DNA of 64,000 nt from Ariolimax columbianus. Its lineage: Eukaryota > Mollusca > Gastropoda > Stylommatophora > Arionidae. The stretch is from positions 43,824,278-43,888,277 of the forward strand of contig JAVGWX010000005.1 of the NCBI GenBank assembly GCA_036924085.1, given 5' to 3'. Positions 6,501 through 60,829 of this stretch are shown piece by piece. A model generated the notes under the pieces. The model was given only the letters and a program-made list of their open reading frames with translations, was not told the origin of the DNA and made no database searches. The position numbers and the translations under genes were made by a program. The number at the start of each line of letters is the position of its first letter. The stretch's first letter is position 1.

Positions 6501-9500
6501 TGATGTAGTATTAATGAAAAACAGTTTTATTACCTGCCTGATATTCTGTCGATTTGACTCTAATTTAGAATATAATACATTTTGCTATCCTCATCTCCAT
6601 GGCACTGAAAACATTTTGCCTGCACATGATCTCTGATTTTAGTGCCACATCTGGAGATTTATCTTTTATGTGTATATTACCAGCAGAAGGAGATGCAGGG
6701 AAAGGAAGACCAGAAGTCTCTCAAAAAAGAGAAAGAAAAGATCCAAATGAAGAAAATGCTAGCTGAGAAGCTCTACAATGTGACACAAGCCTATACGGCC
6801 CGGAAAATGGAGCTCAAGAAAGAAATTATCAATCAACTGCTGGATTATTGTGAATGTGATAATTCAAAAAAAATGTTTCAAAGGTGAATATAATTCTCAG
6901 GTAGAAAGGAAAGTGAGCTGTAGAAATAATAATAATTACTATTATTATTATTATAATTATTATTATTATTTTTATTATTATTATTATTATACGGTGTCTT
7001 ATATATCGTAAATGTCATGATATATAACGTATACTAAATATGTTATATTAAATATGTCAAGTTAATTATACCACGTTAATGTTGTTATGTTAAATACTGT
7101 ATGATAAATATCGCATGATAAATATGTTATGTTAAATATCGTATGATAAATATATTGTGTTAAATGCTGTACGATACATATGATGGATTAAACATGTTAT
7201 GATCAGATGATACTAGCTACCTCAAAATAGGAAGAGAGCCTAATGTACCTCCAATGTCTTGTCTACCTTGTCTGATACTGCAATCTTGGAAATATTTTTT
7301 TGTTTCTCTACTGAACACAAACATTGTTTCAGTAGGTATTCCGTGCACTTGTCTTTCCAGAATGGTTTTCTTCATTGTTATTGTAAATGCCCCATATTTG
7401 AACTGTCTCATCAGTCAGATGTAATTTATTAATTATCTTTCAACTAGCAGTACGCTTGTAAACGATCTGCTCATCAATGGGACTGCACACAATGAGAGAA
7501 ACACCCTTTAACAACTGAACAATGTCATTATACTGGTCTAAATAACTGTATACAACCAGTTTCTTCTATTCATTGTCGTGTTTGTCTTCTCCGAAGCCAC
7601 AATAGGTCATAAGGGCATCACGCAGCGTGTGAGCGTTGTGTCTTGGGTATGTCTCCCATGCCATTTCTTCATTCACCTTCTCCCACGCCGATGAACGTTT
7701 TGGTACTTCTGCTTAATCTAACTGGATAATCATCCTGCACATCTCCCAAAACACCCTCTCTCTCTCTCTCGTAGGCGATTCATTTCAATGGGAACAAGCT
7801 TTGTTCTTGTCTTTATCTCCTTTCAAGTTTCTTTGTGTTTTTCGTTATCCTTTCAGCACCTGTACGCACCTACGACATTGTCGTAAACAGGTCAAACTTA
7901 TCTCAATGCTTTAACTTACTTAACGTCTGTATATTGGTTTAGAAGAGTTCACAGAATCCGTATACAACCAGTTTCTTTGAAGGTGGTTTAAACAATGTGC
8001 GAGTCCATCTTAATAGACTCAAACACTAGAGCTAAGTAGATACGCAGCGGGTTAGGCGCATCTATAGCTGCTCTTAGCGAACCACCTGGGGAAAGGTACA
8101 AATAACATGGGTACATTTTTAACTTCAATGTTCTCGGGGCGTCGGACTCTGTTCGATTTCAAACTGCCAAGAGATTTTTAATGTGCTCGACCCTGAACAC
8201 GAGATTCCGATCTCACTACCCAGAGATCAGAGGACATTTTACAAGAAGATCTAGGTGAAAAAAATCCTGGTCTCCACTGAGATTCGAACAACAATTATTA
8301 GAATAATTATACAAACCGTAAGAGTGGAAAGTGATACTTCTTCGAATTTCGAATGTGTACGAAATAAAATGTGAAATCCACGCTATGTTCTCAAAATATG
8401 TATTAAAGTTATCATTTCAATCATGCAAAGCAAAAAGTCTTATGTTGTATTGAAGATAAAATTATACAGTTACATTATAGATGCAATCAAACACTTGAAA
8501 CGTGTCATTGACAAGGAACAAAGAAAGAAGCTGCTTACATTTTGAGATTTCAAGATCGCTGAATTGGTTCATTATTTAAGGTCCAATGGAAACAGCTGAG
8601 CTAACTGCAAGTGACCTGTCAAATTTCTTCACGTTAATGAATTCAGTTCTACATTTCGTGGACGGTCGTTGTGAGGATAATACCCACACATTGAAAACGT
8701 ATTTGTCACTTTTCCGTCATCAACAACATAATGGCTTTCCTCCTATAGGAATTTTTTATATAATATTATGACAAGTATGTAATGCATGTCAAGTATGTCA
8801 CGTATGTCAAGTATGTCTGCTATGTCAAGTATGACAAGTATATTAAGTATATCAAGTATGACAAGCACGTCAAGCATGGCAAGTGCGTCCAGTATGTAAA
8901 GTATGTTAAGAATGCCAAGTATGTCAATTGTGTCAACTATGGTAGTATGTTAAATATTTTAAGTATGTCAAATATGACAAGTATGCCAAGCATATCAAAT
9001 ATGTCTGATATGTAAAGCATTCTTGCATGTCAAGTACGACAAGCATGTCAAATATACCATTATGTCAAATATGACAAGTACATCTAGTATGTCAATTATG
9101 TCCAGTATGACAAGTATGTCAAGTGTGTCAAGTATGTCTAGCGTGTCAAGTGTGTCAAGCATGTCAAGTATGATAAGTATGTCAAGTGTGTCAAGTATGT
9201 CTAGTATGACAATTATGTTCAGCATGCCAAGTATATCAAGTATAAAACGTATGTCAAGGAAAGACAAGTATGTCAAGCATGTCATATATTTTAAGGTTGT
9301 CAAATATGTCCAGTATTCTAAGTATGTCAAGTTTATCAAGCATGTCATGTATTACAAGAATGTCAAGTATGTCTAGTATGTCAAGTATGTCCAACATGTC
9401 AAGTATGTCTGCTATGTCAAGTATGACAAGTATATTAAGTATATCAAGTATGACAAGCACGTCAAGCATGGCAAGTGCGTCCAGTATGTAAAGTATGTTA

Positions 9501-12819: not shown

Positions 12820-13200
12820 ATTAAAACACGGAACATAACCTGAAGTACGAGATTGCCAGGCACCGTCGAGCAGACTGGACCGCCTTCAACTCGATGAAGG
12901 CGGCAGCAGACTTCCCCAGAGACACCAGACTGCGAACAGACATATTCGACTAAGTGGTGCTACCAGCGTGTTGCTATGGAAGTGAAATCTGGTCTCTGAC
13001 AAACGCCATAGAAAACCAGCTAAGGACAACACATGCCTCACATGAGCGCCGTCTTGTGAGCCTATCACTTAAACAACAGCGCCACAATATATGTTTACAC
13101 AACAGTGACATCCGGGCATTGTCACACATCAAGGATGCCGTACATTATGCCAACAACTCCAAGCACCACCGGGTTGGCCATATAGTCAGAAGGAAAGACG
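12820..13200 (+). pseudogene. LINE family M, RT C-terminal region, copy 1 (left of its minisatellite)
   Basis: The plus strand reads the post-RT region of an RTE/Jockey-like LINE: TAFNSMKAAADF, then a stop, LPACCYGSEIWSLTNAIENQ, SHERRLVSLSLKQQRHN and HNSDIRALSHIKDAV. This matches a family with copies at 35560-37070 and, more distantly, 63270-63620 and 63715-64000. The coding text runs into WSTATT at 13207, where the 29-bp minisatellite begins. Confidence 0.7.
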
Positions 13201-14748
13201 AATACTGGAGCACGGCAACCACACTTTGTGACTCTGGAGCACGGCAACCACACTTTGTGACTCTGGAGCAGGGCAACCACACTTTGTGACGCTGGAGCAG
13301 GGCAACCACACTTTGTGACTCTGGAGCACGGCAACCACACTTTGTGACTCTGGAGCAGGGCAACCACACTTTGTGACGCTGGAGCACGGCAACCACACTC
13401 TGTGACGCTGGAGCAGGGCAACCACTATATGTGACGCTGGAGCACGGCAACCACACTTTGTGACGCTGAAGCACGGCAACCACTATCTGTAACGCTGGAG
13501 CACGGCAACCACACTTTGTGACGCTGAAGCACGGCAACCACTATCTGTGACGCTGGAGCACGGCAACCACACTTTGTGACGCTGGAGCAGGGCAACCACT
13601 ATCTGTGACGCTGGAGCACGGCAACCACACTTTGTGACTCTGGAGCAGGGCAACCACTATCTCTGACGCTGGAGCACGGCAACCACACTTTGTGACGCTG
13701 GAGCACGACAACCACTCTCAGTGACGCTGGAGCACGGCAACCACACTTTGTGACGCTGGAGCACGGCAACCACACTTTGTGACGCTGGGGCACGGCAACC
13801 ACACTTTGTGACTCTGGAGCACGACAACCACACTTTGTGACTCTGGAGCACGGTAACCACACTTTGTGACTCTGGAGCAGGGCAACCACACTTTGTGACT
13901 CTGGAGCACGGCAACCACACTTTGTGACTCTGGAGCAGGGCAACCACTCTCAGTGACGCTGGAGCACGGCAACCACACTTTGTGACTCTGGAACAGGGCA
14001 ACCACTCTCAGTGACGCTGGAGCACGGCAACCACACTTTGTGACTCTGGATCACGGCAACCACACTTTGTGACTCTGGAGCACGGCAACCACACTTTGTG
14101 ACTCTGGAGCAGGGCAACCACTATCTCTGACGCTGGAGCACAGCAGCCACACTTTGTGACGCTGGAGCACGGCAACCACTCTCAGTGACGCTTGAGCACG
14201 GCAACCACACTTTGTGACGCTGGAGCATGGCAACCACACTTTGTGACTCTGGAGCACGGCAACCACACTTTGTGACTCTGGAGCAGGGCAACCACACTTT
14301 GTGACTCTGGAGCAGGGCAACCACTCTCAGTGACGCTGGAGCACGGCAACCATACTTTGTGACTCTGGAGCACGGCAACCACACTTTGTGACTCTGGAGC
14401 ACGGCAACCACACTTTGTGACTCTGGAGCACGGCAACCACACTTTGTGACTCTGGAGCAGGGCAACCACACTTTGTGACTCTGGAGCAGGGTAACCACTC
14501 TCAGTGACGCTGGAGCACGGCAACCACACTTTGTGACTCTGGAGCACGGCAACCACACTTTGTGACTCTGGAGCACGGCAACCACACTTTGTGACTCTGG
14601 AGCACGGCAACTACACTTTGTGACTCTGGAGCACGGTAACCACACTTTGTGACGCTGGAGCAGGGCAACCACTCTCAGTGACGCTGGAGCACGGCAACCA
14701 CACTTTGTGACGCCGGAGCACGGCAACCACACTCTGTGACGCTGGAGC
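13201..14748. repeat. 29-bp minisatellite grown from LINE coding sequence
   Basis: About 53 tandem copies of a 29-bp unit (GAGCACGGCAACCACACTTT plus GTGACTCTG, with GTGACGCTG and CTCTCAGTGACGCTG variants). The unit equals the LINE family M coding text for WSTATTLW; in the copy at 35990-36020 this text is present once. Minus-strand frames full of VTKCGCRAP repeats are a by-product (29 bp times 3 gives a 29-residue period). Confidence 0.92.
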
Positions 14749-15010
14749 ACACAAACAAGTCAGCCATCTACTGGACAACCTATTCCCGAGACAGAATCGA
14801 CTGGAAACCGAGATAAGCACAACAGCACAAAACCAAACGAAAAAACATAGCACTGCTCGAGCCCAGCCCGCTAATCAGAGAAATGCACCAGGCTACTACC
14901 AACTGGCACAAGAGTCGGGATCTGCACAAGGGATAACACCCTTGTAGACACACAAATCGACTAAGACTAAGGCTACAGTTATTGAGAACAAAATCAACAA
15001 AAAAACAGTC
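14749..15010 (+). mobile_element. LINE family M, 3' part, copy 1
   Basis: After the minisatellite the sequence continues with AACAAGTCAGCCATCTACTG, GACAGAATCGACTGGAAACC, AGCACTGCTCGAGCCCAGCC and ends near CGACTAAGACTAAGGC. The same order is found after the other minisatellite at 36890-37060. The 36-bp segment amplified there occurs here only once (14751-14795). 15010-15520 holds nothing recognised. Confidence 0.65.
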
Positions 15011-32794: not shown

Positions 32795-35005
32795 CACGCG
32801 CAAGCAAAAGGACTGGTTTGATGAGAACGATCTAGAAATACAGGGCCTTCTCGATGCAAAACATGAAGCGCACAGGGAATACCAGAGAGACACACCATCT
32901 CCGGCAGCAAAAGCTGCCTTCAATACTGCTCGCAAAGCTGTCCAGACCAGGCTTAGAGAGATGCAAGACTCCTGGCTCAGCAAAAGAGCTGACGAAATTG
33001 AGATGTTCGCCGAGCGTCATGACACCAAACGGTTTTACGAGGCACTGAAAGCTCTCTACGGCCCGCAGCCCTCTAGTAATACTCCAGTTCGCATGCGGAT
33101 GGGGTACTGCTAACAGATAAGGTTCAGATTCTAGACAGATGGGCAGACCACTTCTGCAAAATACTAAACCCCCCATCGTCCATAAATAAAGAGGCCATCC
33201 GGCGAATGCCGCAGGTGGAACTGAACCTGGCGTTGGATGAAGTAATTACTGAGGAGGAAGTCGACAGGGCAATCAGTTCACTATCTATAGGAAAAGCTCC
33301 AGGAGCTGATGCAATACCAGAAGAGGTATATAAGACAGCTGGCCCATCCCTCACCAGAAGGATCACTGACCTCTTCTGTCACATGTGAGCTGAAGGTAAA
33401 ATTCCGCAGGAGCTAAAGGACGCCTCAATCGTTCACCTATACAAAAGAAAGGGCAATCGTCAGGAATGCGACAATCATCGAGGAATATCGCTACTCTCCG
33501 TAGCAGGCAAGATCCTAGCGCGCTTACTGATAAACAGGCTCAACAAACACCTTAAACAAAGCCACCACCTCCCAGAAAGCCAATGTGGATTCAGAGCCGG
33601 AAGAGAAACAGTGGACATGATTTTTGCCGCCCGCCAAGTACAAGAGAAGTGTCGAGAGCAAAATCAGGCCTTGTACACCACATTTATTGATTTGACAAAG
33701 GCATTTGATACAGTAAACAGAGGAGGGCTATGGATGATAATGTCTAAGTTTGGCTACCCCAACAAGTTCATAACAATGGTGAAACAGCTACACGAAGGCA
33801 TGTGTGCTCGTGTACTGGACAGCGGTGCAATCTCTAAAACGTTTCTAGTATCAAACGGAGTAAAACAAGGATGTGTACTCGCCCCGACTGTGTTCAGCAT
33901 GATGTTCGCGGCCACGATGACAGACGCTTTCAGATCATTGGAGCTTGGAATACCCATAAAGTATCGCACAGACGGCAAGTTACTCAATTCCAGAAGAATG
34001 AAGGCCAAAACCAAAGTGGCTGGCGACATAATCAGGGAACTTGTATTTGCTGACGACTGCGCTCTAATGAGCAACTCAGAACTGAACATGCAGGTTGGAA
34101 TGGACCAGTTCTCTGCCGCATGCGAAAATTTTGGTCTGACCATAAATGCCAAAAAAACAGAGGTCATGTACCAACCAGCACCAGGCATGCCGTACACAAA
34201 ACCAAAGACTACAGTCAGCGGGCAGACGTTGAATGCCGTAGACAAATTGACATATCTGGGCAGCACGCTGTCGAGATCTGTCAGCCTAGGCGATGAGGTG
34301 GCAAGCAGAATAGCAAAGGCCAGCACAGCCTTTGGTAGAATGCGCTCGATGGTCTGGGCACGTCGTGGCATCAGCGTCAAGACCAAACTCAAAGTCTACC
34401 GTGCAACACTCATTACAAACTTAATATACGCTTGCGAAAGCTGGACTGTATACTCTGGACATGCAAGGAGGTTAAATCACTTCCACACAGGTTGCCTGAG
34501 GCGAATATTCCACATCAGATGGCAAGATCGTGTCACGGACATCGATGTTCTCTCGAGGGCTAACATGCCCAGCATCCATGCACTGCTAGAAAAAGCACGA
34601 CTAGGATGGGCCGGACACCTCGTCCGTATGTCAGACGAGCGGCTCCCAAAGAAGCTTCTCTACGGCGAGCTGAGAGAGGGATGGCGCGAGAGAGGGCGCC
34701 CAAAGAAACGTTTTAAAGACGGTCTGAAGGACTCACTAAAAAGTTGCGAGATAGACATCGACACCTGGGAATGTCTTGCGAAAAACAGATCTGACTGGAG
34801 AAGCGCAGTCAAATCGGGTGTAGCTGCTGGTGAAGATGACCGTGTTGTGAAAGCCCAGAACAGACGCGAGACGCGGAAATCCAGAGCAGCGGGAACACCA
34901 TCCCCTTCTACAAACCTCGTGTGCCCGATATGTAGCAGATGTTTTCGTGCTCGCATTGGCCTGTTCAGCCACATGCGCACCCACACCCAACAGGGAAATC
35001 TATGA
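32795..35005 (+). pseudogene. LINE reverse transcriptase with C-terminal C2H2 finger, nearly intact but 5'-truncated
   Basis: The endonuclease is missing; the frame opens near 32800 (RKQKDWFDENDLEIQG, the linker before RT). A one-base loss near 33100 shifts the frame, and TGA 33386-33388 interrupts it; from 33389 it is open to TAA-like end at 35005. RT blocks are in order: IGKAPGADAIPEE, DLTKAFDTVNRGGLW, GVKQGCVLAPTVFSMMFA, catalytic ELVFADDCALM and LTYLGSTLSRSVSLGDEV. Then come ACESWTVYSGHARRLNHFHT, LGWAGHLVRM, GRPKKRFKDGLKDSL and a classic C2H2 finger (C-x2-C-x12-H-x3-H) about 20 residues before the stop. No RNase H. It is the best preserved LINE here. RTE/Jockey-like; exact clade not decided. 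Confidence 0.85.
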
Positions 35006-37070: not shown

Positions 37071-37336
37071 CAAAAATACCGCATAATCGTACATAATACA
37101 AAACTGTATTGAATTTTATTTAGTCATAAACCCAGAGTTGTGGATATATGAATATTTGTAATAACAGCAGTAACACCGATATTGACAAAGGTGATATGGG
37201 CGTTTGTATAACTTATAGTACACTACAGCATGTATATTGCGAAATTCGTAGTCAAATAGAAAGTAAATATGGCAACAACTTAGCAGTACGTTTTGTCCAA
37301 AATTTGAAAAAAATGGTACAACATATTTGATGATAC

Positions 37337-37743
37337 TTCTTCTTCTTCTTCTTCGTACGCAGTCAGACAGTAACCATTATTTTTTCGAAAAAAAGCGGCG
37401 GTCATCCTGAGGCTGTCGCCACTACCATAGAGCTTGTCTTGCAGTTCCACTGGTGATGGCCACATCTGCTCTCTCTGATCCTCGTATGTCGGGCAGTTCT
37501 GCAGCAGATGTTCAGCGGTCATTTTACCAGTACCGCACGGGCATTCGTCGGTACACCCTATCTTCAATTTGTTGAATAGGTGGTACCTCAGTCTATTGTG
37601 GCCAGTGCGAAGTCTGAAGACAACGACCTGCTCTCTTCGGTTCAACTGGTAATAGGCATCGTTTTTGGTGTAACCAGTATGTTCGGTTTCCCATTTGGTC
37701 ATGTATCTGGCTTTGATAAGCCGTTTCGACTCTTCGTACGTCA
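37337..37743 (-). mobile_element. 5'-truncated copy of the GAA-tailed LINE (3' end only)
   Basis: The minus strand is an open 3' end reading MTYEESKRLIKARYMTKWET, LNRREQVVVFRLRTGHNRL, a zinc-knuckle-like CTDECPCGTGKMTAEHLLQN, then a (GAA)n tail at 37337-37354. The 12-bp duplication ATTTGATGATAC flanks it exactly (37325-37336 and 37744-37755). The frame has no stop before the tail and continues as poly-Glu. This copy fixes the family's 3' terminus and integration style (target-primed, 12-bp duplication) and lacks stops over the LINE part, so it is younger than the 51-57 kb copy. Confidence 0.88.
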
Positions 37744-48685: not shown

Positions 48686-50614
48686 ATGTTAATTATTTGT
48701 ATTATTTTTAGTAATATTATTCGACATATTTGATTTAATCTCTTTCTTTTATATTTACATTTTAAAAATCCGAATTGTTCTCTTTCATTTGTTGTTCTTG
48801 CTGTTTTTATTTATTCGAAAACTTGTCCATCTTCTTGTTCTTCTCCTTTTGTATCTGCTTATTCTTCTCCTGCTCCATATTTTTCATCATCTTCTACTCC
48901 TTCTTCTTCAATGACTGTTAAGAGAATGATATATTAATTAAATCGTGTACTTTGCTTTCTACAATATTTAGTAGAATATTAATTATTTAAGATGTTCGAA
49001 TAAATTTTGTAATGACAACATGTGCTTTACCAAACGTGAAGCAGTAGTCTACTCTAGATAAGTTAGACAACAACAAATTAAAGTAGATATCCCTAGTAGC
49101 AGAACTATGTGTGTATACGTTGTAAATATGTGTGAAAATTACCAAATGTAACACTGCAGACAAGTCGTGATGTAGCGGTTTTCACAGAACACACCAGCAT
49201 ACTACTTCGGCTAGTTTAGTTGCATCGATATATGATTCTTATAGTTCATTTTGTAGAGGACGTGTACACGTCACAGTGGCTCGAGTACAGTGTAAATTCA
49301 TGTGGTTTAAGTATTTTGAACCCACACAAGCGGGCACAGCCACAAATTCATTCCCCAGTTGAGGCGGAAATGTTTTTCAGACCACAACGGCTCTCGGGTC
49401 GACCTAGCCTTAAATGGGTACCGGTTCAGTCTGAGAAGTAAAAGCGGCGAGGGAGAGGCGATGGCTACAGGCCCTCATATAGCCGAGCCTTTGAAATGTG
49501 AAATCGCTAACATTTCACACCCCTTACGGCAGTAATGCAATTGGTTACTTTACTTTACTTTTAGTAGATTTACTTCGGCTTTATTAGGCATATTTCTTTA
49601 GTACACTGACTTCCGTTATCTGATGATTAATTCTTAAGTAAATTAACTTCCGTTTAGTTAGGCTTAATTTCTTAGTAGATTGGCTTCTTTAACTAAGAGC
49701 AAAATCAAGGATCGATTGTGCCATCTGGATCAACTGTAGCGACATATGCTCTAGACTCGAACATATCTCAGTATCTTCAGTACAAAGAAGCCTAACCACT
49801 CTGACATAAAACCTGATCGATAATTGAAGCATAAAACACGAATAGATTACATATTATTTACAATTGTAATGTGAAAGAACGCGGTTGATGAATACCAATA
49901 AAACAAAACTATAACTAGACTTGTCAACAAAGACATGCTTACACGCTGCTTTTTAATTAGCTAGCTCTAATTGATCCATCAATAAAACACGTGTCGTGGG
50001 CAGGAGCCGCAGCCTTCAGATAAACTTGAAAGAGAATTGTCCTTCGATCCCATTCCTTGCTCAGTTAGGAATGGTTACCAGCACGTAACGTGGCGTCGTA
50101 ATTACAGCAATAAACCAGAAAAAGCCAATTGAAATTGACCTGTCAGACCTTAACAAACAATAACAATATCACAGAAAGAATTATGTTTTCGCACTGCAAG
50201 TACAGAAGTTAAAACGTAGGTAAAATGTGTGCAGAATAGCAAATGCAAGTCGCGACGTAATTAGTATTGTTCTGTTTCTACTCGAGTCACATAAGAGAAA
50301 ACGTACATTGTCTACAATCAAATACAGGGGAAAGGTTATGAAAGTCACTTTGTCAGATGTTTAAAAAAAAATGTAAGTGTTTGCCTACCTGTATCTACTG
50401 ACAGAGGCACGCTTCTTTCCACTCCGGGTCGCAACCTTTCAGGTGATATTAGGACTTATTAACCAGTGATTGGATGCACGTGTGCGTCTGTATGTAACTA
50501 TGCTAGATTTTGCTGGTCTCAGAGGTCAACAAAAATCCAATAGAAGGGTCTCACCCTGAAGGCGCGTGTGATCGTTGTGTAAGAGTGTGATTATTGGATG
50601 GAGTCAAATGAAAC

Positions 50615-51118
50615 AGGGTGTGAGGTAAGAAGAGAGAGGAACCTTGCAGTTTCACTTAATGTTACATAATAGAGTGTGAGGTAAGAAGAGAGAGGAACCT
50701 TGCAGTTTCACTTAATGTTACATAATAGAGTGTGAGGTAAGAAGAGAGAGGAACCTTGCAGTTTCACTTAATGTTACATAATAGAGTGTGAGGTAAGAAG
50801 AGAGAGGAACCTTGCAGTTTCACTTACTGTTACATAATAGAGTGTGAGGTAAGAAGAGAGAGGAACCTTGCAGTTTCACTTAATGTTACATAATAGAGTG
50901 TGAGGTAAGAAGAGAGAGGAACCTTGCAGTTTCACTTAATGTTACATAATAGAGTGTGAGGTAAGAAGAGAGAGGAACCTTGCAGTTTCACTTAATGTTA
51001 CATAATAGAGTGTGAGGTAAGAAGAGAGAGGAACCTTGCAGTTTCACTTAATGTTACATAATAGAGTGTGAGGTAAGAAGAGAGAGGAACCTTGCAGTTT
51101 CACTTAATGTTACATTAC
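50615..51118. repeat. 56-bp tandem repeat, nine near-identical copies
   Basis: Units start at 50615, 50671, 50727 and every 56 bp to 51063 (AGAGTGTGAGGTAAGAAGAG ... CACTTAATGTTACATAAT). Only single-base differences are visible (for example ACTTACTG near 50823), so the expansion is recent or homogenised. Confidence 0.95.
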
Positions 51119-51317
51119 AGGATGCTTACATTGGATGGCATCGGTCATTAGGCTAAACGGAGGTAAACCGTGTGCTTAGAAAACTGAAATAGATTATTGA
51201 TATACGCGTATGTCGTCCAACGTGAATTTTATATCGCATATCTATCATCATGCTGTCTGAAATGATCAAGAGAGCACTAGCAGGACATTCTTAGCGTTCT
51301 AGAGTAAATAATCTATA

Positions 51318-52750
51318 TTCTTCTTCTTCTTCTTCTTCTTCATCGTACGCAGTCAGATAGTAACCATTAATTTTTCGAAAAAAGCGGCGGTCATCCTGAT
51401 GCTGTCGACACTGCCATAGAGCTTTGTCTTGTGGTTCCACTGGTGATGGCCACATCTGCTCTCTCTGATCCTCGTATGTCGGGCAGTTCTGCAGCAGATG
51501 CTCAGCGGTCATTTTCTCGGTACCACACGGGCATTCGTCGGTACCACCTATCTTCAATTTGTTGAATAGGTGGTACCTCAGTCAATTGTGGCCAGTGCGA
51601 AGTCTGAAGACCACGACCTGCTCTCTTCTGTTCAACTGGTAATAGGCATCGTTTTTGGTGTAGCCGGTATGTTCAGTTTCCCATTTGGGAATAAGCCGTT
51701 TTGACTCTTCGTACGTCATACTAGTATCTAGTGGTAGTCTTGCACCTTCTTTTGCCAGTCTGTCTGCCTCCTCGTTGATTTGGATGTTGCAGTGTGATGG
51801 GACCCACTGTACCACTACCCTTTTTGGTGCGGACTGCTGGCATAGTTGACAGAGTACTGCTCTTAAATCATTAAGCTCAGTGTTTTTCTGGCTTTTTAGC
51901 GCTGTGACTACGGCCAGAGCATCTGTAAGCAGGACTATATGGCTTTCATTTTCTTTATGTGTCACCATTTCTTCCACTGCCGCCCTCAGTGCCTCTGCCT
52001 CCGCTCTGAAATTGCTTATGTACTTACCAGTAGCGAATGACAGTGCTCTTTTTCTGCCATTTTATAGCTTCAGGAATGCTCCTGCCCCTCCGTTCTGTGT
52101 AGTGTTTGATACAGAACCGTCGGTGTATGCATGGGTCCAGTCCATTGGGTAGTTTTTCGATATAAAGCTTAGGGTAGTATCTCTCCTTTCTTTTTCAGTC
52201 TGGCGGTTTTTGTTTCCAATACATTGTATATTTTATACCACCTCTGGAAATATATACTGCCTCCAGGTAGGTTTTCGTACAGTAGTGATGGGCTTTGGTG
52301 TTGTTAGTGTATTTATGGGATCTTCGTGCATCTTTGCTTTGGCTATTTCTGCAAAGTTTCTCCGCTTTAGTTTCCCATTTCCCAAATTGTTTAGTCTCTG
52401 GTGCATTGGGTGGTCAGTCAGTATTCGGAATCTCTCTGACTGCAGCTGGACTCTGCAGTATCTTCTATCGGTCATGGGTTGCAGCTTTGTAATCTTTTCA
52501 AGTTCTAAAATTGGCGTTGACTTCATGCCTCCTGTTATAACTCTCATGGCTTGGTTTTGAGGTTTGTTAACTTTATCGAAGTTCGCCTTTGCTGCTGTTG
52601 TCCATGCCGCAATGCCATACTCGAGGACTGGTCTCACTCTTCTAGTGTACAGTTTCTTTAGTATACTTTCGTCTGCCCCCCAGCTTGTGCCAGCCAGTTT
52701 CCTCATGATTGCCATTCTTTCTCTGGCTCTCATTCGGTTTCTCTCGATCT
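51318..52750 (-). pseudogene. GAA-tailed LINE, 3' half: RT thumb, RNase H, C-terminal Cys/His region
   Basis: From 52750 the minus strand continues the RT (RMRARERMAIMRKLAGTSWG, RRVRPVLEYGIAAW). It then has an RNase H domain: AYTDGSVSN, NFRAEAEALRAAVEEM, HIVLLTDALAVV and VQWVPSHCNIQINEEADRLA, i.e. the D-E-D-H/D set. Then come RTGHN, a stop at 51584-51582, and the CPCGTEKMTAEHLLQN region before a (GAA)n tail at 51318-51340. Stops also occur at about 52230 and inside RNase H. APE-type LINEs with RNase H include the I, Ingi, Nimb and Loa groups; I cannot place it further. It is the 3' half of the element whose 5' half is 55118-57600. Confidence 0.85.
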
Positions 52751-54326
52751 TCTTCTTGTTCATCGTACGCCATTTACAGCGATATTTACGTTGCACTGTT
52801 TTAATTTGTTAGCCTGTGGCTCAGTGCATCCAATTTCAACAGGCTGCCCTCCTTAGCCTTTGGCTGTCCGTAGCCTAACTGCAAGGCAGCAGTTGTTTTT
52901 GGTCAGAGTTGTCTCTCTTAGGAAGTTGTCTTTGCAGGACTATCGAGTCTTCCCTACTCGTGTCTATAGGGTTTGGCAATGATATGATGGACTATGTACT
53001 AGTTTGTACTATCCCGGAAGAGAGGCAGTCTAGTGTGAATTTTTCCCAGGATCGTCACGTCCTGCCAGAAACGTAGCATATGCATATGAGTGAGGTATCT
53101 TTTTGCTCGCTTTATTTTCTCGGCTCATCTGCAGTGATGGTACGCCTATCATTCCCCGCCACCCGGGAGGTTGTCACCATAGGGCAGGAGGTGCAATGTC
53201 CGCTGGACTGCATCTCTTCTGCGTCCATTGGAATGACTGATAGCAGACAGAGGCAAAGAGCGAGGAAGGAGTGCATTTTACCAAGTGCATTCCTGCGGCT
53301 CGACCGGGCGGGGCTAAGACGCAAATCCTAGCCATGTCGCAGCCTCCCATCACAGCAGTGCTGAGATTTAGGGCGGGATTCTGGCTTAGAGGCGTTCGGC
53401 CGTAGTCCCTCAGATGGTAGCTTATCAGCCAAGCACGTGGACCAAATGTCAGCGACCTATGATTCCTCTCGAAATAGTGCATTTGACCAGGGGACAAGCC
53501 TGGTCATTGCACGGAGATGTTGTTCGCCTGGTGCGAACATATCTCATGTCAAGGGTTGAGTCTCAGCAGTTCGCAGTGAGGTAGCTGATCTACTGCTTAG
53601 GGCACCCCGACCGAGAACTAAGTCTTCTGCAAATGGTTTCATACCTCAACGCCGTATGGGGTGAATATCGAGCAGCTTCCCGCCCGCTTTGATCGGCAGA
53701 CGGCAGAGACCTCATTCTGCGGCTTGAGCGGGCGGGGCTGGAGCGGGAGCCCCAGGTCCCCACCATGTCAAAGCCTCCCCTTTCAATCGTGCTGAGCTTT
53801 TGCGTGGGATTTTGGCTTAGAGGCGTTCGGCCGTAATCCCTAACCTGGTAGCCTCGCGCCGTTTGCTTATCAGCCTAGTACGTGAACCAAATGTCTGCGG
53901 CTCCTCTCGAGTTAAACAGGATTACCGTAGCAACGCACTGTCAATAGTAGGGTAAAACTGACCTGTCTTCCGAGGGTCTATTTCCAGCACCCGTTCAATA
54001 TTAGACCGGACGTATACATAAAGGGCTTTTTAGTTTTGTCAATGACTGTCCTGTCTTCCGTGGGTCTAATACCAGCACACGTTCACTATTAGACCCAACG
54101 GAAGTGCTCTCAATTTGACATTCATTCTACAGTATTAGCGTCAATTTAAGCTGCACGCTCCACTCCTGGTAGTGCCCTTCCGTCAATTCCTTTATCAAAA
54201 ACTGAATGCAGACCAACCGAGCCACAGAGGGCATAACCCCCGATTTCTAAGCATCCAAATCCAGCACCCGTTCCATATTAGACCAACGGAAAGTGGTCTC
54301 GGTATGTCAGTCACTTCATTGTTGGC

Positions 54327-54398
<72 letters not shown>

Positions 54399-55117
54399 TT
54401 TGCAACCATACTTCCTCCGGAACCCAAACACTTTGGTTTCCCGGAAGCTGCCCGCAGAGTCATCGAAGCAACTCCTGCGGATCGCTAGTCGGCATCGTTT
54501 ATGGTCAGAACTACGACGGTATCTGATCGTCTTCGTGCCTCTGACTTTCGTTCTTGATTAATGAAAACATTCTTAACAAATGCTTTCGCAGTAGCTCGTC
54601 TTGCGGCGATCCAAGAATTTCACCTCCAACGCCGCATGACGAATGCCCCCTTTTGTCCCTGTTAATCATTACCTCCAGTTCCGAAAACCAACAAAATAGA
54701 ACCGAGGTCCTATTCCATTATTCCATGCACCATTATTCAGGCAGCCGAGGCCTGCTTTGAATACTCTAATTTTTTCAAAGTAAACGAGCCGGCCACCCAA
54801 GACGCTCAGCGAAGAGCACCCGTGGGAGAGAGCTGGCAGACGGTAGGGCAAGAGACAACGGGTAGTCAATCGGCGCGAGCCGGACCGCCCGCCTGCGCCT
54901 GAGATCCAACTACGAGCTTTTTAACTGCACGAACTTTAATATACGCTATTGGAGCTGGAATTACCGTGGCTGCTGCCACCAGACTTGCCCTCCAATAGAT
55001 CCTCGTTAAAGGATTTAAAGTGTACTCATTCCAATTACGGGGCCTCGAAAGAGTCCCGTATTGTTATTATTCGTCACTACCTCTCCGAGCCGGGAGTGGG
55101 TCAGTTTCTATCGATCT
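52734..55117 (-). mobile_element. Nested rRNA-LINE chimeric retroposon with 17-bp target duplication
   Basis: The insertion is 52751-55100. It is flanked by AGATCGATAGAAACTGA (55117-55101) and AGATCGAGAGAAACCGA (52750-52734), two differences in 17. Read 5' to 3' on the minus strand it has an 18S fragment (55100-54325), a scrambled 18S/28S-like leader (54324-53000), LINE 5'-leader text (about 53000-52780) and GCGTACGATGAACAAGAAG, the LINE family's 3' terminus. It encodes no protein. It interrupts the host LINE exactly between IDRN and RMRARE of one RT domain. A 28S-like block is duplicated inside it (53290-53470 and 53720-53930) but single in the outer copy. Confidence 0.78.
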
Positions 55118-57600
55118 GACTTTTCCATGTCATGCGCCGATCAAATGTGACTTCCAGATAGTTTGGGTTGTCGTTTGGCTGCAGGAAAATGCCATTTAGA
55201 CTTAATTTGGGGTGTTGGGGTTTGATTGAAAACGAGAATATTGTACATGTGGTTTTCTTGTCGTTTATTTTGACCAGCCATGAGTTTGCCCACTCTTCCA
55301 GCGATGTTATGGCCTGCTGCATCCGGTTTCTTGCTATGGTGAGATTCATTTCAGTGGTCCACATAGCCAGATCGTCTGCAAACATTGAGCTATGGACTCA
55401 TCTTGGTATATTCTCTGTAATGTCGTTTATATACACCAAGAAGAGTGTGGGTGACAGTACTCCCCCTTTGGGTACTCCCTGCTTAAGTGTCAGCTTTTTG
55501 CTCATCTGCCCTTGTACTTGGACTCTGGCCGTTCTTTGTTTGAGGTAGTGGTTGATCCACTTGTACAAACTTCACTTCTCCTTAGCTTGACTCTAACTTC
55601 GTTTTTCCAGACTTTGTCAAATGCCTTTTCCAGGATCACCCGAACCGCTACTGTGTGCTTCTGTGCCTGGTAGGCATCTTTCTTTTTCATGGGCTATGAG
55701 GATGACCTGGTCCTCAGTGGATCTGTGCTGTCTAAGGCCGGCTTGCTGTGGAATTAGTATTCGTTTTTCTTCCAGATGCCACATCAGTCTGGTGTTTATC
55801 ATACGTTCCATCAGTTTACCCACACAGATCAGTAGGCTGATAGGCCTGTATCAACTTGGATCTGTTTTGTCCTTTCCTTTCTTTGGTACTGGTACAAGTA
55901 CTGCGTCTTTCCATGCCTGGGGTACAATTCCCCTTTTCCAGCTTTGGTTCAGGACCGATAGCAGTTTCCTCTTCGCTGTTTGGCCCAGCGCCATCAGCAT
56001 TTCGTTTGTTATCCCGTCTTTTCCCGGAGATTTCCTTTTCTTTAGTGTTCTCATTGCTTTTTCCATTTCACTCATTGTTAATTTCGCCATCATATGCTCT
56101 TCTGATTCCGTATTGATGTAGTCGTGCACCTTTTGCTCTTCACTAATGTCTTTATGCCTATCTGCAGGGACATCTATGTGGTTCGCTCTGGCATAGTGTT
56201 CAACAAAGGCGTTTGCGGCTTTTTTTCCAATGAGCAAGTTTTCGCCCTGCTTGATGGTAATTTGTTCGTTTGAAGGGGTTTCGTTATTCATGGCTCTGAC
56301 TAGCTACCATAGTTTGTTCCCTTCTTTGTCTAAATTGAGGCTTTCTGTTTTATTTTTCCAGCTTTCTCTTGCTGTTTGGTTTAGAGTGTATTTGTATTTT
56401 CCCGCGGCGGCTTAGAGGGCGATATTTGCCTCCATAGATTGTTCTCGCTCTGCCATGTTCCTGGCATTTGTGACTGCATCTTCCGCTTTCTGCAACTCAT
56501 CATTCCAATAGGGCTTATAGTTTTTCCTAGCCCCTCTTGGAATGGTTTCAGTGGCGGCTTGCATTATTGCCTTGCTTAGGCTTGCCACCATGGGCTTCAT
56601 TTTGTTGTTTCGTGTGTTGATGGTTTCACACAGCCCATATGTCAGGATTGCAAATCTGTCCCAGTCGGATCGTTTGTAATTCCAACTTGGGAGCGGTTTT
56701 GTTTTCTATGGGCCTACTTCCATATCAATGTCTAGCCTGATCGGCCTGTGGTCGCTACCTGCCAGTTGGTTCAGCACCTGGCGGTCTATTTTATGGTGTA
56801 TGTCCTGTGTGGAAAAAGCAAAATTTGGAGTCGAGGTGGTATGCCATGTTCTAGAATAGAAACTAGGGCTATCCTCCGGCCATTTGATTAGAGAGAGATG
56901 TGTGTCTATCTCCCAATCGTCCACTTCGTCACCTCTGCTGTATGAGTCCGAGTATCCTCATCTCTCCGAATGGCTGTTGAAGTGTCCAACTACTATGCAG
57001 TTGGAGTCCTTGACGTCCACACTGGAGAGCGATAGATCTTTCGTTGGTCGTCCGTACAGATTGAAAATGCGGAGCTTCGTCTCTTGAGCCATTATGTCAA
57101 CTCCTACAATTTCTGCTTGTCCGGTGTGATTGACAGATACCGCGCTACTCGGTATGCAGTTTCGGGTCTATATCAGGACCCCTCCTTTGTGACTTTCTAT
57201 ATCGAGATGGAAGGTCTGGTATCCTCTAATTGAGAATTTATTGTTTTTGTTGAGGTGCGTTTCCTGGATACATGCCACGTGAATCTTACCTTCATGCAGG
57301 TGATGTGTTAGAGAAAGCTTTTTGTTAACGACACCCTCCGCATTCCACTGTAGTATTTTGAGGGTCTTTAATTTTTGGTCAATAGGAGTTGCCCCATAGC
57401 CATGTGCCTTGACTCCACAACACATCGGTGGCTGACCACCAGTAGTAAAGGGTGGGCCCCTTCGAGGCGTGAGGCCCGGCACTCTCGCTGCCTGGCGGGA
57501 CTTCGCAGGATGAGCGCCATACCTTTTTCTGATAGGTTGTACTGTCATCCTACTGCGATTTACGTTACACTGTTTCGTTAGGCTTGTGGCCCTGTGCATC
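55101..57600 (-). pseudogene. GAA-tailed LINE, 5' half: APE endonuclease and RT
   Basis: The minus strand from 57599 has a short Arg-rich start, then the endonuclease (LKILQWNAEGVVNKKLS, HVACIQETHLNKNNKFSIRG), later GSDHRPIRLDI near 56730 (His/Asp end of the endonuclease). The RT follows: SPGKDGITNEMLMALG, WKDAVLVPVPKKGKDKTDPS, LIPQQAGLRQHRSTEDQVI, AFDKVWK, catalytic MFADDLAMWTTEMN and TFDRRMTWKSQIDRN. Frameshifts and stops break it into at least six open pieces. No ORF1 was found upstream. It continues at 52750 after the nested insertion. Confidence 0.82.
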
Positions 57601-58914
57601 CGAATTCAACAGGCGTTTCTGTAGGGATGCCCTCCTTAGCCTTTGGCGGTCCCCAATTTATCTGCAAGGCAGCAGTTGTTTGTGATCAGAGTTGTCTTTC
57701 TTCTGGAAGTTGTCTTACCAGACTAACGAGTCTTCACTACTCGTGTCTATAGGGTGCGGTTATGATATATGAGATGATATATGATATGGATTGGTTTACC
57801 CGGAAGAGAGGCAGTCCAGTGTGTCTGTATCCCAGGATCGTCACGTCCTGCCAGAAACGTAGCATTTGCATGTGAGTGGAGTATCTCTTTGCTCCCTTTA
57901 TTTTCTTGGCTTCTATGCAGGGATGGTACGCCTAGCATTCCCCGCCACCTGGGATGTTGACACAGTGGGGCAGATGTGCAATGTCCGCTTGTCTGCATCT
58001 CTTCTGCGTCCATTGGTATGGCTGATAGCGTACAGAGGTAGATATCGAAGCAGAAGTGCATTCAACCAGGGGACAAGCCTGGTAATGTAACGGAGATGCT
58101 GTTCGCCTGTTTTGCGGACATTTCTCGTGGTCAAGAAATGAGTCTCGACAGTTGACAGTGATATGGCTGCTCTACTGTTTTCGACACCCCGACCAAGAAC
58201 TAAGTCTTATGTTGGTATTTCGCCCCCCATCGCCGTATAGGGTAAATATCGAGCAGCTATCCGACCGCTTTGATCGGCGGATGGAAGAGACCTCTTTCTG
58301 TGGCTCGACCTGGTAGGGTTGAGGCGCGATCCCCAGGTCCCGACCATATCGAAGCCTTCCATTGCAGTGGTGCTGAGAATTTGGGCGGGATTCCGGCTTA
58401 CAGGCGTCCGGCCGTCGTCCCTCACATGGTAGCCTCGCGCCATTGGCTTATCAGCCTGGTACCTGAACCAAATATTTGCAGCTCTTCTCGAGTTGAGCAG
58501 GATTTCCGTAGCAACGCCCTGTCATGTGTAGGGTAAAACTGACCTGTCTTCCGATGGTCTATTTCCAGCACCCGTTCACTATTTGTCCAGGACGAATTAA
58601 TCGAGGGCTTTTGTTTGTTAGTGACCAGGTATCATGTCTTCCATGGGTCTAATACCAGTACACGTTCACTATTAGACCCAACGAAAGTGCTCTCGATTGG
58701 TCAGTCGTTCTACAGTATTTGCGTGTTGAGTCAAATTTAGCAACAGGCGTCACTCCTGGTAGTGCTCTCCCGTTAATTCCTTTATCAAACACTGAATGCA
58801 GACCAATCGTGCCACAGAGGGCATAACCCCAGATTTCTAAGGGTCTAAATCTAGCACCAATTCCATATTAGTACCAAGAGAAGTGGTCTCAGCGTGTCAG
58901 TTATTTCAGTGTTG
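57601..58914 (-). other. LINE leader with 28S 3'-end-like and scrambled 18S/28S sequence
   Basis: Between the 18S part and the LINE coding region. 58590-58130 on the minus strand has clear 28S 3'-end homology (GACAGGTCAGTTTTACCCTA, AATCCTGCTCAACTCGAGAA, ACGCCTGTAAGCCGGAATCC). 58900-58600 contains a second, degraded 18S piece (AAAGGAATTAACGGGAGAGC ... AAATTTGACTCAACACG) and three versions of a 28S-like GGTCTAA...CCAGCACC motif. 58130-57600 is unclassified and may hold the real 5' end of the LINE. The same order recurs in the nested copy at 54324-52780 with about one change per eight bases. Confidence 0.7.
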
Positions 58915-60152
58915 GCCGTGTTGAGTCAAATTAAGCCGCAAGCTCCACTCCTGATGGTGCCCTCCGTCAATTCCTTTAAGTTTCAGCTTTGCAACCATAC
59001 TTCCCCCGGAACCCAAACACTTTGGTTTCCCGGAAGCTGCCCGCAGAGTCATCAAAGCAACTCCTGCGGATCGCTAGTCGGCATCGTTTATGGTCAGAAC
59101 TACGACGGTATCTGATCGTCTTCGCGCCTCTGACTTTCGTTCTTGATTAATGAAAACATTCTTAACAAATGCTTTCGCAGTAGCTCGTCTTGCGGCGATC
59201 CAAGAATTTCACCTCTAACACCGCAATACGAATGCCCCTGTTTGTCCCTGTTAATCTTTACCTCCAGTTCCGAAAACCAACAAAATAGAACCGAGGTCCT
59301 ATTCCATTATTCCATGCACCATTACTCAGGCAGCCGAGGCCTGCTTTGAACACTCTAATTTTTTCAAAGTAAACGTGCCGGCCACCTAGGACGCTCAGCG
59401 AAGAGCACCCGTGAGAGAGAGCCGGCAGGCGGTAGGGCAGGAGACAACGGGCAGTGAATCGGCGCGAGCCGGACCGCCCGATTGCGCCTGAGATCCAACT
59501 ACGAGCTTTTTAACTGCAACAACTTTAATATACGTTTTGGAGCTGGAATTACCGCAGCGGCTGGCACCATACTTGCCCTCCAATAGATCCTTGTTAAAGG
59601 GTTTAAATTCTACTCATTCCAATTACTGGGCCTCGAAAGAGTCCCGTATTGTTATTTTTCGTCACTACCTCTCCGTGTCGGGAGTGGGTGTTTTGCGCGC
59701 CTGCTGCCTTCCTTGGATGTGGTAGCCGTTTCTCATGCTCCCTCTTCGGAATCGAACCCTGATTCCCCGTTACCCGTTTTAAACATGGTAGGCATGTCCC
59801 GTACCATCGACATTTGATTGGGCAGACATTTGAAAGATGTGTCGCTGGCACTTGAGGCCATGCGATCAGCACAAAGTTATCCAGAGTCACCAGTGGGGAC
59901 GCCGCAACCCCGCGAGGGGAACGTCGATTGGTTTTGAATTAATAAAAGCGCTCTTTCCGCGAGGGTCGGAGCTTGGTAAGCATGTATTAGCTCTAGAATT
60001 GCCACAGTTATCCAAGTAGGATCGTGTCATCTAAAGAACCTGGACTGATTTAATGAGCTATTCGCGGTTTCACCGTGAGACAGTGTGAACTTAGACATGC
60101 ATGGCTTAATCTTTGAGACAAGCATATGACTACTGGCAGGATCAACCAGATA
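58915..60152 (-). rRNA. 18S (SSU) rRNA, 5' two thirds only
   Basis: The minus strand starts TCTGGTTGATCCTGCCAG and runs collinear with eukaryotic 18S: TCTAAGTTCACACTGTCTCA, GGCAAGTATGGTGCCAGCC, GTGAAATTC region, AAAGGAATTGACGG-like text and CTTAATTTGACTCAACACGG, where homology stops. About 1.24 kb of a usual 1.8 kb is present; the 3' third is missing. Universal positions show some substitutions (for example GGTGCCAGCCGCTGC), so it is probably a pseudo-rRNA attached to the LINE, not a working gene. Confidence 0.88.
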
Positions 60153-60785
60153 TCTTTCGGAGACGTACGTACCGCACACACCGGTCGGCGGAGGACGGGT
60201 GTGTAAAAAACCTCACTGGGACGGCCGCAGGGACCGACTAACGAACGGACGGACGGTTGTTCCCCCCGTGCCTCACTCCATCGACCTAGGACCGTCTGAC
60301 AGGGGCCCCTACACGCACCAGACGACTTACCGACCGGGCTCGCTCGAGGAGGGATGGCAGCGCTCTCTGCAAAACGGATCCCAACGACCCCGGCGATGAA
60401 TTTCACTGGGACTAGAGACAATTTGGCCTGCCGGCCTGCCTTTCTCCCGAGGGTTGGTCTCCGGAAGAACACAGGGCCTTCATGCACGATTCCTGCTTTC
60501 CATTTGCCGATCACAAGCTCTTTGCGAGAGTTTGACCACCAGCGAGACGAACTGTCGAGCTCTGCTATAAGCCTTAGATAAATCACCACCGACTGACAAC
60601 GTTTCTCGATACGGACCAGAGCAGCGCACCTCGGCGGAGGAGACGCCAAAAAAAACCGCATCCCGATACCTCTACGGGGAAAGGCGAGCAAGCGTTTTCC
60701 GCAAGCCCGCGCTATCGCTCCTCCTGGCGGGACTGAGATCGCTTTACGAACACTGGTTGAAATTGAATCGCGGCGGCGAGACAAC
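60153..60785 (-). other. Putative pre-rRNA 5' external transcribed spacer
   Basis: A GC-rich block directly upstream of the 18S 5' end, ending abruptly at CTGGGGTAGTTGTCTCGCCG (60785), beyond which ordinary AT-rich DNA begins. Position and composition fit a 5' ETS. The 244-residue frame across it and the 18S start is a shadow. Confidence 0.6.
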
Positions 60786-60829
60786 TACCCCAGATTAATC
60801 TCTATTTAACATCAACATCATGAAACATG

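What the first reader, a model, noticed from the sequence alone, without database searches (positions are those of the whole stretch)
51318..60785. A LINE with an rRNA leader: ETS, 18S and 28S-like sequence fused upstream of an APE/RT/RNase H retrotransposon
On the minus strand one collinear object runs ETS-like, 18S 5' two thirds, scrambled 18S/28S leader, APE endonuclease, RT, RNase H, (GAA)n tail. The 18S/leader/LINE junctions are the same in two separate insertions (outer copy and nested copy), so they did not arise by one-off template jumping. Models: (a) the LINE inserts in 18S at CTCAACACGG, is co-transcribed by Pol I, and read-through RNA starting at the rRNA promoter was retroposed here; (b) the lineage has taken an rRNA segment as its own leader. 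Known rDNA-specific LINEs (R1, R2, R7, R8 and others) live inside rDNA; a copy that carries rDNA with it to another site would be unusual.
Basis: partly seen in the sequence, partly recalled or inferred. Interest (0 to 1): 0.9.

Follow-up and report, generated by a model that had tools for sequence, protein, structure and literature searches.

The report
Jumping gene wearing a ribosomal-RNA leader
A LINE retrotransposon family with thousands of copies carries the front end of the host's ribosomal-RNA transcript as its own front end, and the borrowed 18S piece has, as far as tested, stayed identical to the working ribosomal gene while the rest of the element changed.

Summary
On the minus strand, 60795-51318 is a LINE headed by 5'ETS, 18S nt 1-1240 and an rRNA-like leader, then APE/RT/RNase H and a (GAA)n tail, between 9-bp duplications (8 of 9 bases match). 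It is a family trait: the exact 27-nt 18S/leader junction occurs 4,451 times in the 2.29-Gb genome (control 0). Of 20 copies chosen by leader similarity, 16 carry 18S and 10 reach the ETS start. Complete copies begin at or very near ATCTGGGGTAG, where homology to a functional-looking rDNA unit begins, so the 5' end is probably the Pol I start. Two sets of copies share the same ancestral 18S (0 fixed differences in 1,240 columns) while ETS differs at 33/648 and leader at 26/262. The one rDNA unit read matches the 18S consensus over the 547 nt read. ETS and leader trees conflict (AU p 2e-49 and 4e-11). So ETS+18S is exchanged with, or copied from, live rRNA genes independently of the LINE. Unresolved: template switching onto pre-rRNA, or sources inside rDNA.

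The parts
60796..60804 (-). 5' target-site duplication TAGAGATTA
51318..60795 (-). complete-length but mutated copy of the rRNA-headed LINE, including the nested insertion
   Evidence: same order of parts in sister copies; start and duplication
60153..60795 (-). 5'ETS, beginning at ATCTGGGGTAG, the base where homology to a tandem rDNA unit begins
   Evidence: L047; sister copies
58916..60152 (-). 18S rRNA, about nt 1-1240
   Evidence: Rfam RF01960, 876 bits
57600..58915 (-). rRNA-derived leader / 5' UTR
   Evidence: exact junction repeated 4,451 times in the genome
58722..58783 (-). internal repeat of about 18S nt 1180-1240 within the leader
58118..58520 (-). degenerate 28S 3' end in the leader
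   Evidence: aligned repeat of the nested Rfam LSU match; LSU 3005-3399 in sister copies L010, L012, L028
51353..57599 (-). broken reading frame APE - RT - RNase H, interrupted by the nested insertion
   Evidence: the ORF listing; Pfam on sister copies L012, L013, L025
51318..51345 (-). (GAA)n tail, limits approximate
51309..51317 (-). 3' target-site duplication TATAGATTA
52751..55103 (-). nested ORF-less derivative: 18S part, leader, LINE 3' tail
   Evidence: Rfam; BLAST; same architecture in L040
55104..55117 (-). duplication flanking the nested copy, AGATCGATAGAAAC
52737..52750 (-). duplication flanking the nested copy, AGATCGAGAGAAAC
   Evidence: uninterrupted sequence in L043

Best explanation
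This is a multi-thousand-copy APE/RT/RNase H LINE family whose transposing RNA begins at the start of the rRNA transcript and reads 5'ETS - 18S nt 1-1240 - rRNA-derived leader - ORF - (GAA)n. It inserts by target-primed reverse transcription at unrelated sites (supported by duplications, 5' truncations and tail). The ETS+18S module is kept in step with the host's living pre-rRNA by recombination, most simply inside the shared 18S stretch, while leader and LINE evolve on their own (shown: identity and conflicting trees; the breakpoint is inferred). The route of refreshing is inferred. Either the reverse transcriptase, having copied LINE and leader, switches within 18S to abundant pre-rRNA and copies it to its 5' end; or the source copies sit in or beside rDNA arrays, are made by Pol I, and share concerted evolution with their neighbours. 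The confidence is for this shared core, not for one of the two routes.
For: 4,451 exact 18S/leader junctions, control 0. 10 of 20 leader-chosen copies reach the ETS start; starts at ATCTGGGGTAG or small variants next to target duplications; 9 of 13 18S-chosen copies start exactly there. Homology to the rDNA unit begins at that base and excludes the upstream spacer. 0 of 1,240 fixed 18S differences between 8 lineage-A and 10 other copies against 33/648 in ETS and 26/262 in leader; the ORF changes mostly at third positions between lineages, 31/27/118, so the LINE lineages were functional over that time. 18S nt 1-547 of the rDNA unit equals the A consensus. ETS: B-C 0 fixed, functional-B 3, functional-A 35; leader: B-C 19 of 262. 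Reciprocal AU rejection.
Against: Thousands of identical junctions must have been templated by element RNA or DNA, so de novo jumping alone cannot be the rule. A-type ETS was not seen in rDNA contigs (40 scored of 3,364 candidates). All A-versus-functional ETS change could have happened in rDNA after an A burst; there is no outgroup. Only 547 nt of one rDNA unit's 18S were read. The 18S-chosen copies are biased to few private changes. No copy with the junction was shown inside an rDNA array, and no RNA evidence exists.
Confidence: 0.72

Rival explanations
1. Sources live in rDNA: a rearranged rDNA unit (18S fused to 28S 3' sequence, LINE downstream) is transcribed by Pol I as one RNA, and gene conversion with neighbouring units keeps its ETS and 18S current. 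This is one of the two routes within the best explanation.
For: 5' end at the rRNA start without promoter; ETS, 18S and 28S 3' end in rDNA order; module exchange and 18S identity expected from concerted evolution; irregular unit spacing in rDNA contig C67.
Against: 0 LINE tails within 30 bases of the downstream half of the 18S site. No rDNA contig among the 40 scored matches to A-type ETS. The junction list shows only the first 100 places, all on C1, so rDNA contigs could not be checked.
Confidence: 0.4
2. 5' renewal by template switching: element RNA that ends in or near 18S is completed during reverse transcription by switching to pre-rRNA, which is copied to its start. This is the other route within the best explanation.
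For: A second rRNA::leader join (18S to about nt 1737, then leader) at two loci; 18S 3' sequence about 395 nt upstream of a leader hit at C1:102335386 (coordinates only); constant 5' end at the rRNA start; ETS 0.5% apart but leader 11% apart in L034/L039; one-off L1-rRNA chimeras are in print (passages of PMC13174262).
Against: The canonical junction is templated in thousands of copies; gene conversion in DNA gives the same pattern.
Confidence: 0.35
3. The leader was captured once and 18S is held by selection on the element RNA (for example processing, nucleolar targeting or avoidance of silencing), with no further exchange.
For: 0 of 1,240 fixed changes is compatible with constraint; ORF also under selection.
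Against: ETS and leader trees conflict; identity to the working gene holds over nt 1-547 including the less conserved parts.
Confidence: 0.12
4. The join is an assembly error or a single fusion in this window.
For: Prior caution about rDNA in assemblies only.
Against: 4,451 exact junctions; copies with different flanks and duplications on many chromosomes.
Confidence: 0.02

Closest known systems
rDNA-specific non-LTR elements (R1, R2, R7, R8, R9)
   Same: Non-LTR element tied to rRNA transcription; [quoted passage not shown]
   Different: Here copies lie dispersed with the rRNA on board at the 5' end, and no insertion at the 18S site was found
Chimeric LINE-1/rRNA insertions of mammals
   Same: rRNA piece joined to the 5' side of a LINE; 18 cases with 28S (passages of PMC13174262)
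   Different: Those are single events with fragments; here one junction is repeated 4,451 times and the rRNA starts at the transcript's first base
rRNA-derived SINEs (5S, 28S)
   Same: rRNA 5' part and LINE 3' tail without ORF, as in the nested copy and L040; such SINEs are mentioned in PMC13174262 (passages)
   Different: ETS+18S rather than 5S or 28S; kilobases long; Pol III promoter not tested
5' UTR replacement in mammalian L1 lineages (recalled, no call)
   Same: Modular replacement of the 5' end of a LINE
   Different: Here the module is host pre-rRNA and matches the living gene

Membership tests
Non-LTR retrotransposon (LINE), APE type with RNase H | APE endonuclease, RT and RNase H | tested here: met
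   Pfam on sister copies L012, L013, L025; relatives with the same domains
Non-LTR retrotransposon (LINE), APE type with RNase H | target-site duplications, 3' simple tail, 5' truncation | tested here: met
Non-LTR retrotransposon (LINE), APE type with RNase H | placement in a named clade by tree | not tested
   no reference set of clades was used
R element (rDNA-specific LINE) | inserted at a fixed site in rRNA genes | tested here: not met
   0 matches of LINE tail beside the 18S site; fetched copies lie at unrelated sites. Other rDNA sites were not tested
R element (rDNA-specific LINE) | co-transcribed with rRNA by Pol I | not testable with these tools
   5' end equals the inferred rRNA start; no RNA data
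One-off chimeric rRNA/LINE insertion | junction unique to one insertion | tested here: not met
   4,451 exact junctions
rRNA-derived SINE / non-autonomous derivative | no ORF, rRNA 5' part, LINE 3' tail | tested here: met
   only for the nested copy 55103-52751 and L040
rRNA-derived SINE / non-autonomous derivative | short length and internal Pol III promoter | tested here: inconclusive
   kilobases long, promoter not tested

The most novel reading that the evidence does not exclude
A LINE that renews its own 5' end from the host: it keeps an 18S stretch as a homology handle and, during reverse transcription, switches onto abundant pre-rRNA and copies it to the Pol I start. The element then has a complete, current rRNA front end without having to preserve it itself, and its dispersed copies record past versions of the host's ETS.
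Probability: 0.35. Interest if true: 0.95.

Novelty: new variant of a known kind. Interest (0 to 1): 0.86.

Why it matters
It would be a LINE family whose RNA front end is the host's own pre-rRNA, kept current by exchange rather than merely inherited. That makes several questions testable: whether LINE reverse transcriptases switch templates by homology in nature, whether Pol I can drive a genome-wide LINE, and whether 18S identity shelters an element from small-RNA silencing. In practice, such a genome holds thousands of 18S pieces outside rDNA, which can mislead 18S-based identification, rDNA copy counts and repeat masking.

Tried and rejected
Rejected: assembly error or single fusion. Not supported: LINE insertion at 18S CTCAACACGG (exact pattern, assembled rDNA only). 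Considered: A-type ETS as a second functional rDNA variant; no rDNA contig among 40 scored of 3,364 candidates, so disfavoured, not excluded. Considered: all A-versus-functional ETS change happening in rDNA after an A burst; not excluded without an outgroup. Not reached: genome counts of ATCTGGGGTAGTTGTCTCGC and of the LINE tail. Nine answered literature searches listed no paper whose title or abstract start reports a LINE family with an ETS-18S leader; the library is open access only and I saw listings, plus passages of two papers. nominally extends the L043 18S match to the model's end; I place the join at about nt 1737 by eye and by offset. Rows dropped: L031, L035, L036; L031 and L035 from the B set; the fixed counts used 6 A, 9 B and 2 C copies, L019, L022 and L025 having no leader cut, and the L019 row of the ETS alignment was mis-cut and was removed. 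In one search the ten non-A copies include L039 and L042, later called C. 'Fixed' means the majority base in at least 75% of each set.
Full report
What is there. The minus strand of 60795-51318 holds one retrotransposon copy. In order: 5'ETS (60795-60153), 18S nt 1-1240 (60152-58916), a leader (58915-57600), a broken APE/RT/RNase H frame (57599 to about 51353) and a (GAA)n tail. The flanks TAGAGATTA and TATAGATTA match at 8 of 9 bases. Rfam gives SSU at 59007-60149 with 876 bits, SSU in the nested copy, and the LSU 3' end in the nested copy. In three sister copies (L010, L012, L028) the leader matches LSU positions 3005-3399, the 3' end of 28S, with 82-92 bits: a degenerate 28S 3' end. Before it lie repeated blocks, one of them a second copy of about 18S nt 1180-1240; the shorter blocks I read as 28S-like by eye against recalled 28S.

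The nested copy. About 55103-52751 is not a second complete LINE. It is a 5'-truncated, ORF-less form in which the leader runs straight into the LINE 3' tail, flanked by AGATCGATAGAAAC and AGATCGAGAGAAAC inside the outer copy's coding region. L043 shows that region uninterrupted. L040 on C9 has the same ORF-less architecture with ETS and 18S, so this form has moved more than once.

A family, not an accident. The window lies in a 2.29-Gb assembly of 401 contigs. The exact 27-nt 18S/leader junction occurs 4,451 times (2,207 forward, 2,244 reverse; reversed-pattern control 0). I fetched 20 copies ranked by leader similarity. 10 of 20 reach the ETS start, 1 begins within the ETS, 5 within 18S, 1 (L011) has only the last few 18S bases, and 3 (L009, L018, L021) begin in the leader: the usual 5' truncation of LINEs. 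In 13 of the 16 copies with 18S, the 18S and leader alignments meet at the same join within 3 nt; in L017, L022 and L023 a deletion covers it. Complete copies start at ATCTGGGGTAG, exactly in L010, L022, L023, L026, L027 and L028 and with small changes in L015, L019, L024 and L025, directly after a target duplication at unrelated sites, for example TAGTCACAC, TCTTTTAAAC, ATACCTTCAC and TTGATTGATT. Of 13 further copies found by 18S similarity (L030-L042), 9 start exactly there, 3 within a few bases and 1 is truncated; 11 of 13 have the exact canonical junction, L035 has it with one change and L036 has another. L030 and L031 look like a local duplication of one insertion.

The 5' end is that of pre-rRNA. 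A query with 18S 3' sequence found tandem rDNA on small contigs, with units near 12.28 kb on C222; of 40 scored places 16 lie on small contigs and 24 on chromosome-size contigs. One unit was read in part (C222:52180-53769). Element homology begins at the A of ATCTGGGGTAG; the spacer upstream (...GGAATGTATATT) is not in the elements. The form GTATATTATCTGGGGTAGTTG occurs 122 times; of the 100 places listed, 4 are on chromosome-size contigs and 96 on small ones. That this base is the Pol I start is inference; no RNA was examined.

18S does not drift. Among 16 copies of the main lineage (A), mean pairwise divergence is ETS 5.4%, 18S 3.2%, leader 5.1% and 2.6%, APE-RT 3.8%, RNase H and tail 3.4%, so the parts moved together. 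A second lineage (B) appears among copies with the best 18S. Between 8 A copies and 10 others, fixed substitutions are 33 of 648 ETS columns, 0 of 1,240 18S columns and 26 of 262 leader columns. Coding differences between the A majority (11 copies) and the states shared by two B copies fall 31/27/118 on codon positions 1/2/3 in 1,249 codons (105 synonymous codons, 59 not); deviations within A fall 238/218/345 (283 synonymous, 487 not). So source lineages were under selection while single copies decay. At the roughly 10% seen in leader and third positions, some 120 changes would be expected in 18S. The rDNA unit's 18S nt 1-547 equals the A consensus exactly; its ETS is 7.0% from the A consensus and 1.3-3.0% from B/C copies, L035 apart; the remaining 693 nt of 18S were not read. 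Copies L030-L042 were chosen by 18S score, which favours few private changes, so the telling number is the absence of fixed differences.

Modules with different histories. Lineage C (L039, L042) has a leader fixed apart from B at 19 of 262 columns and from A at 13, yet its ETS has 0 fixed differences from B and 29 from A; the functional unit differs from B by 3 and from A by 35 substitutions. L034 (B) and L039 (C) have ETS 0.5% and leader 11.0% apart and group on ETS with support 99. Forcing one topology on the other segment, 17 copies, is rejected both ways (AU p = 2.26e-49 and 4.46e-11). The functional ETS falls among the B/C copies (support 88 for its group). The functional unit also lacks some ETS columns that both element sets have (16 gap columns, 25), so rDNA units may vary there. 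Taken together, ETS+18S has been exchanged with, or taken from, living rDNA independently of leader and LINE. The point of exchange is most simply in the shared 18S; this is inference.

Other joins. L036/L043 on C22 starts at the same base, runs through 18S to about nt 1737, then joins the leader at about its position 36, followed by an internal deletion, the LINE 3' part, a tail and the flank GGATAAGG. The same join is matched at C12:4768963. At C1:102335386 18S 3' sequence lies about 395 nt upstream of a leader hit, known by coordinates only.

Mechanism. Shown: a TPRT-type LINE; the rRNA module is part of the transposing unit; that module does not share the history of leader and LINE. Inferred: Pol I start and the route of exchange. 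Two routes remain: rDNA-resident sources with concerted evolution (0.4) or template switching onto pre-rRNA (0.35). Against the first: 0 LINE tails beside the downstream half of the 18S site and no rDNA contig among the 40 scored matches to A-type ETS. Against the second as the sole process: thousands of identical junctions must have been templated. Selection on 18S without exchange (0.12) does not explain the tree conflict.

Known relatives. Protein relatives are many (1,896 with E <= 0.001 among 8,000 scored; best 66% identical and unnamed; Batillaria attramentaria 46% and Littorina saxatilis 43% are named), which suggests a gastropod host. Passages of PMC13174262 report single L1-rRNA chimeras, 18 of them with 28S pieces. 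Passages of PMC5035012 report R8 in hydra 18S and R2 families with 28S-derived 3' UTRs. What I saw of the two does not describe a family headed by ETS+18S.

Noticed in passing
window 37336-37743 (-): A 5'-truncated 3' end of the same LINE (RNase H side and GAA tail), about 90% identical to the outer copy.
   Followed up: partly
window 33611-35005 (+): A second, different LINE-type ORF: Pfam RVT_1 (E 3.8e-21) and a weak C2H2 finger below its cut-off at the C terminus.
   Followed up: partly
window 50500-51232: A 56-bp tandem array lies right downstream of the element's 3' end.
   Followed up: no
window 8995-10524 and 13145-14750: Long repeated ORFs suggest tandem arrays: near-identical 117-aa frames spaced 592 bp apart and a repeated SHKVWLPCS-like motif (by eye).
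   Followed up: no
G000 contig C67 (rDNA): Spacing of promoter-linked rRNA starts is irregular (for example 18.6, 16.3 and 17.0 kb beside about 12.15 kb, one start inverted), as if units carry insertions or rearrangements.
   Followed up: no
G000, 24 chromosome-size-contig places: 18S 3' sequence also lies outside the rDNA contigs; except for L036/L043 and the C12 join these places were not read.
   Followed up: partly
L047 (rDNA unit, C222): This unit lacks a stretch of ETS (16-25 aligned columns) that both element lineages carry.
   Followed up: no
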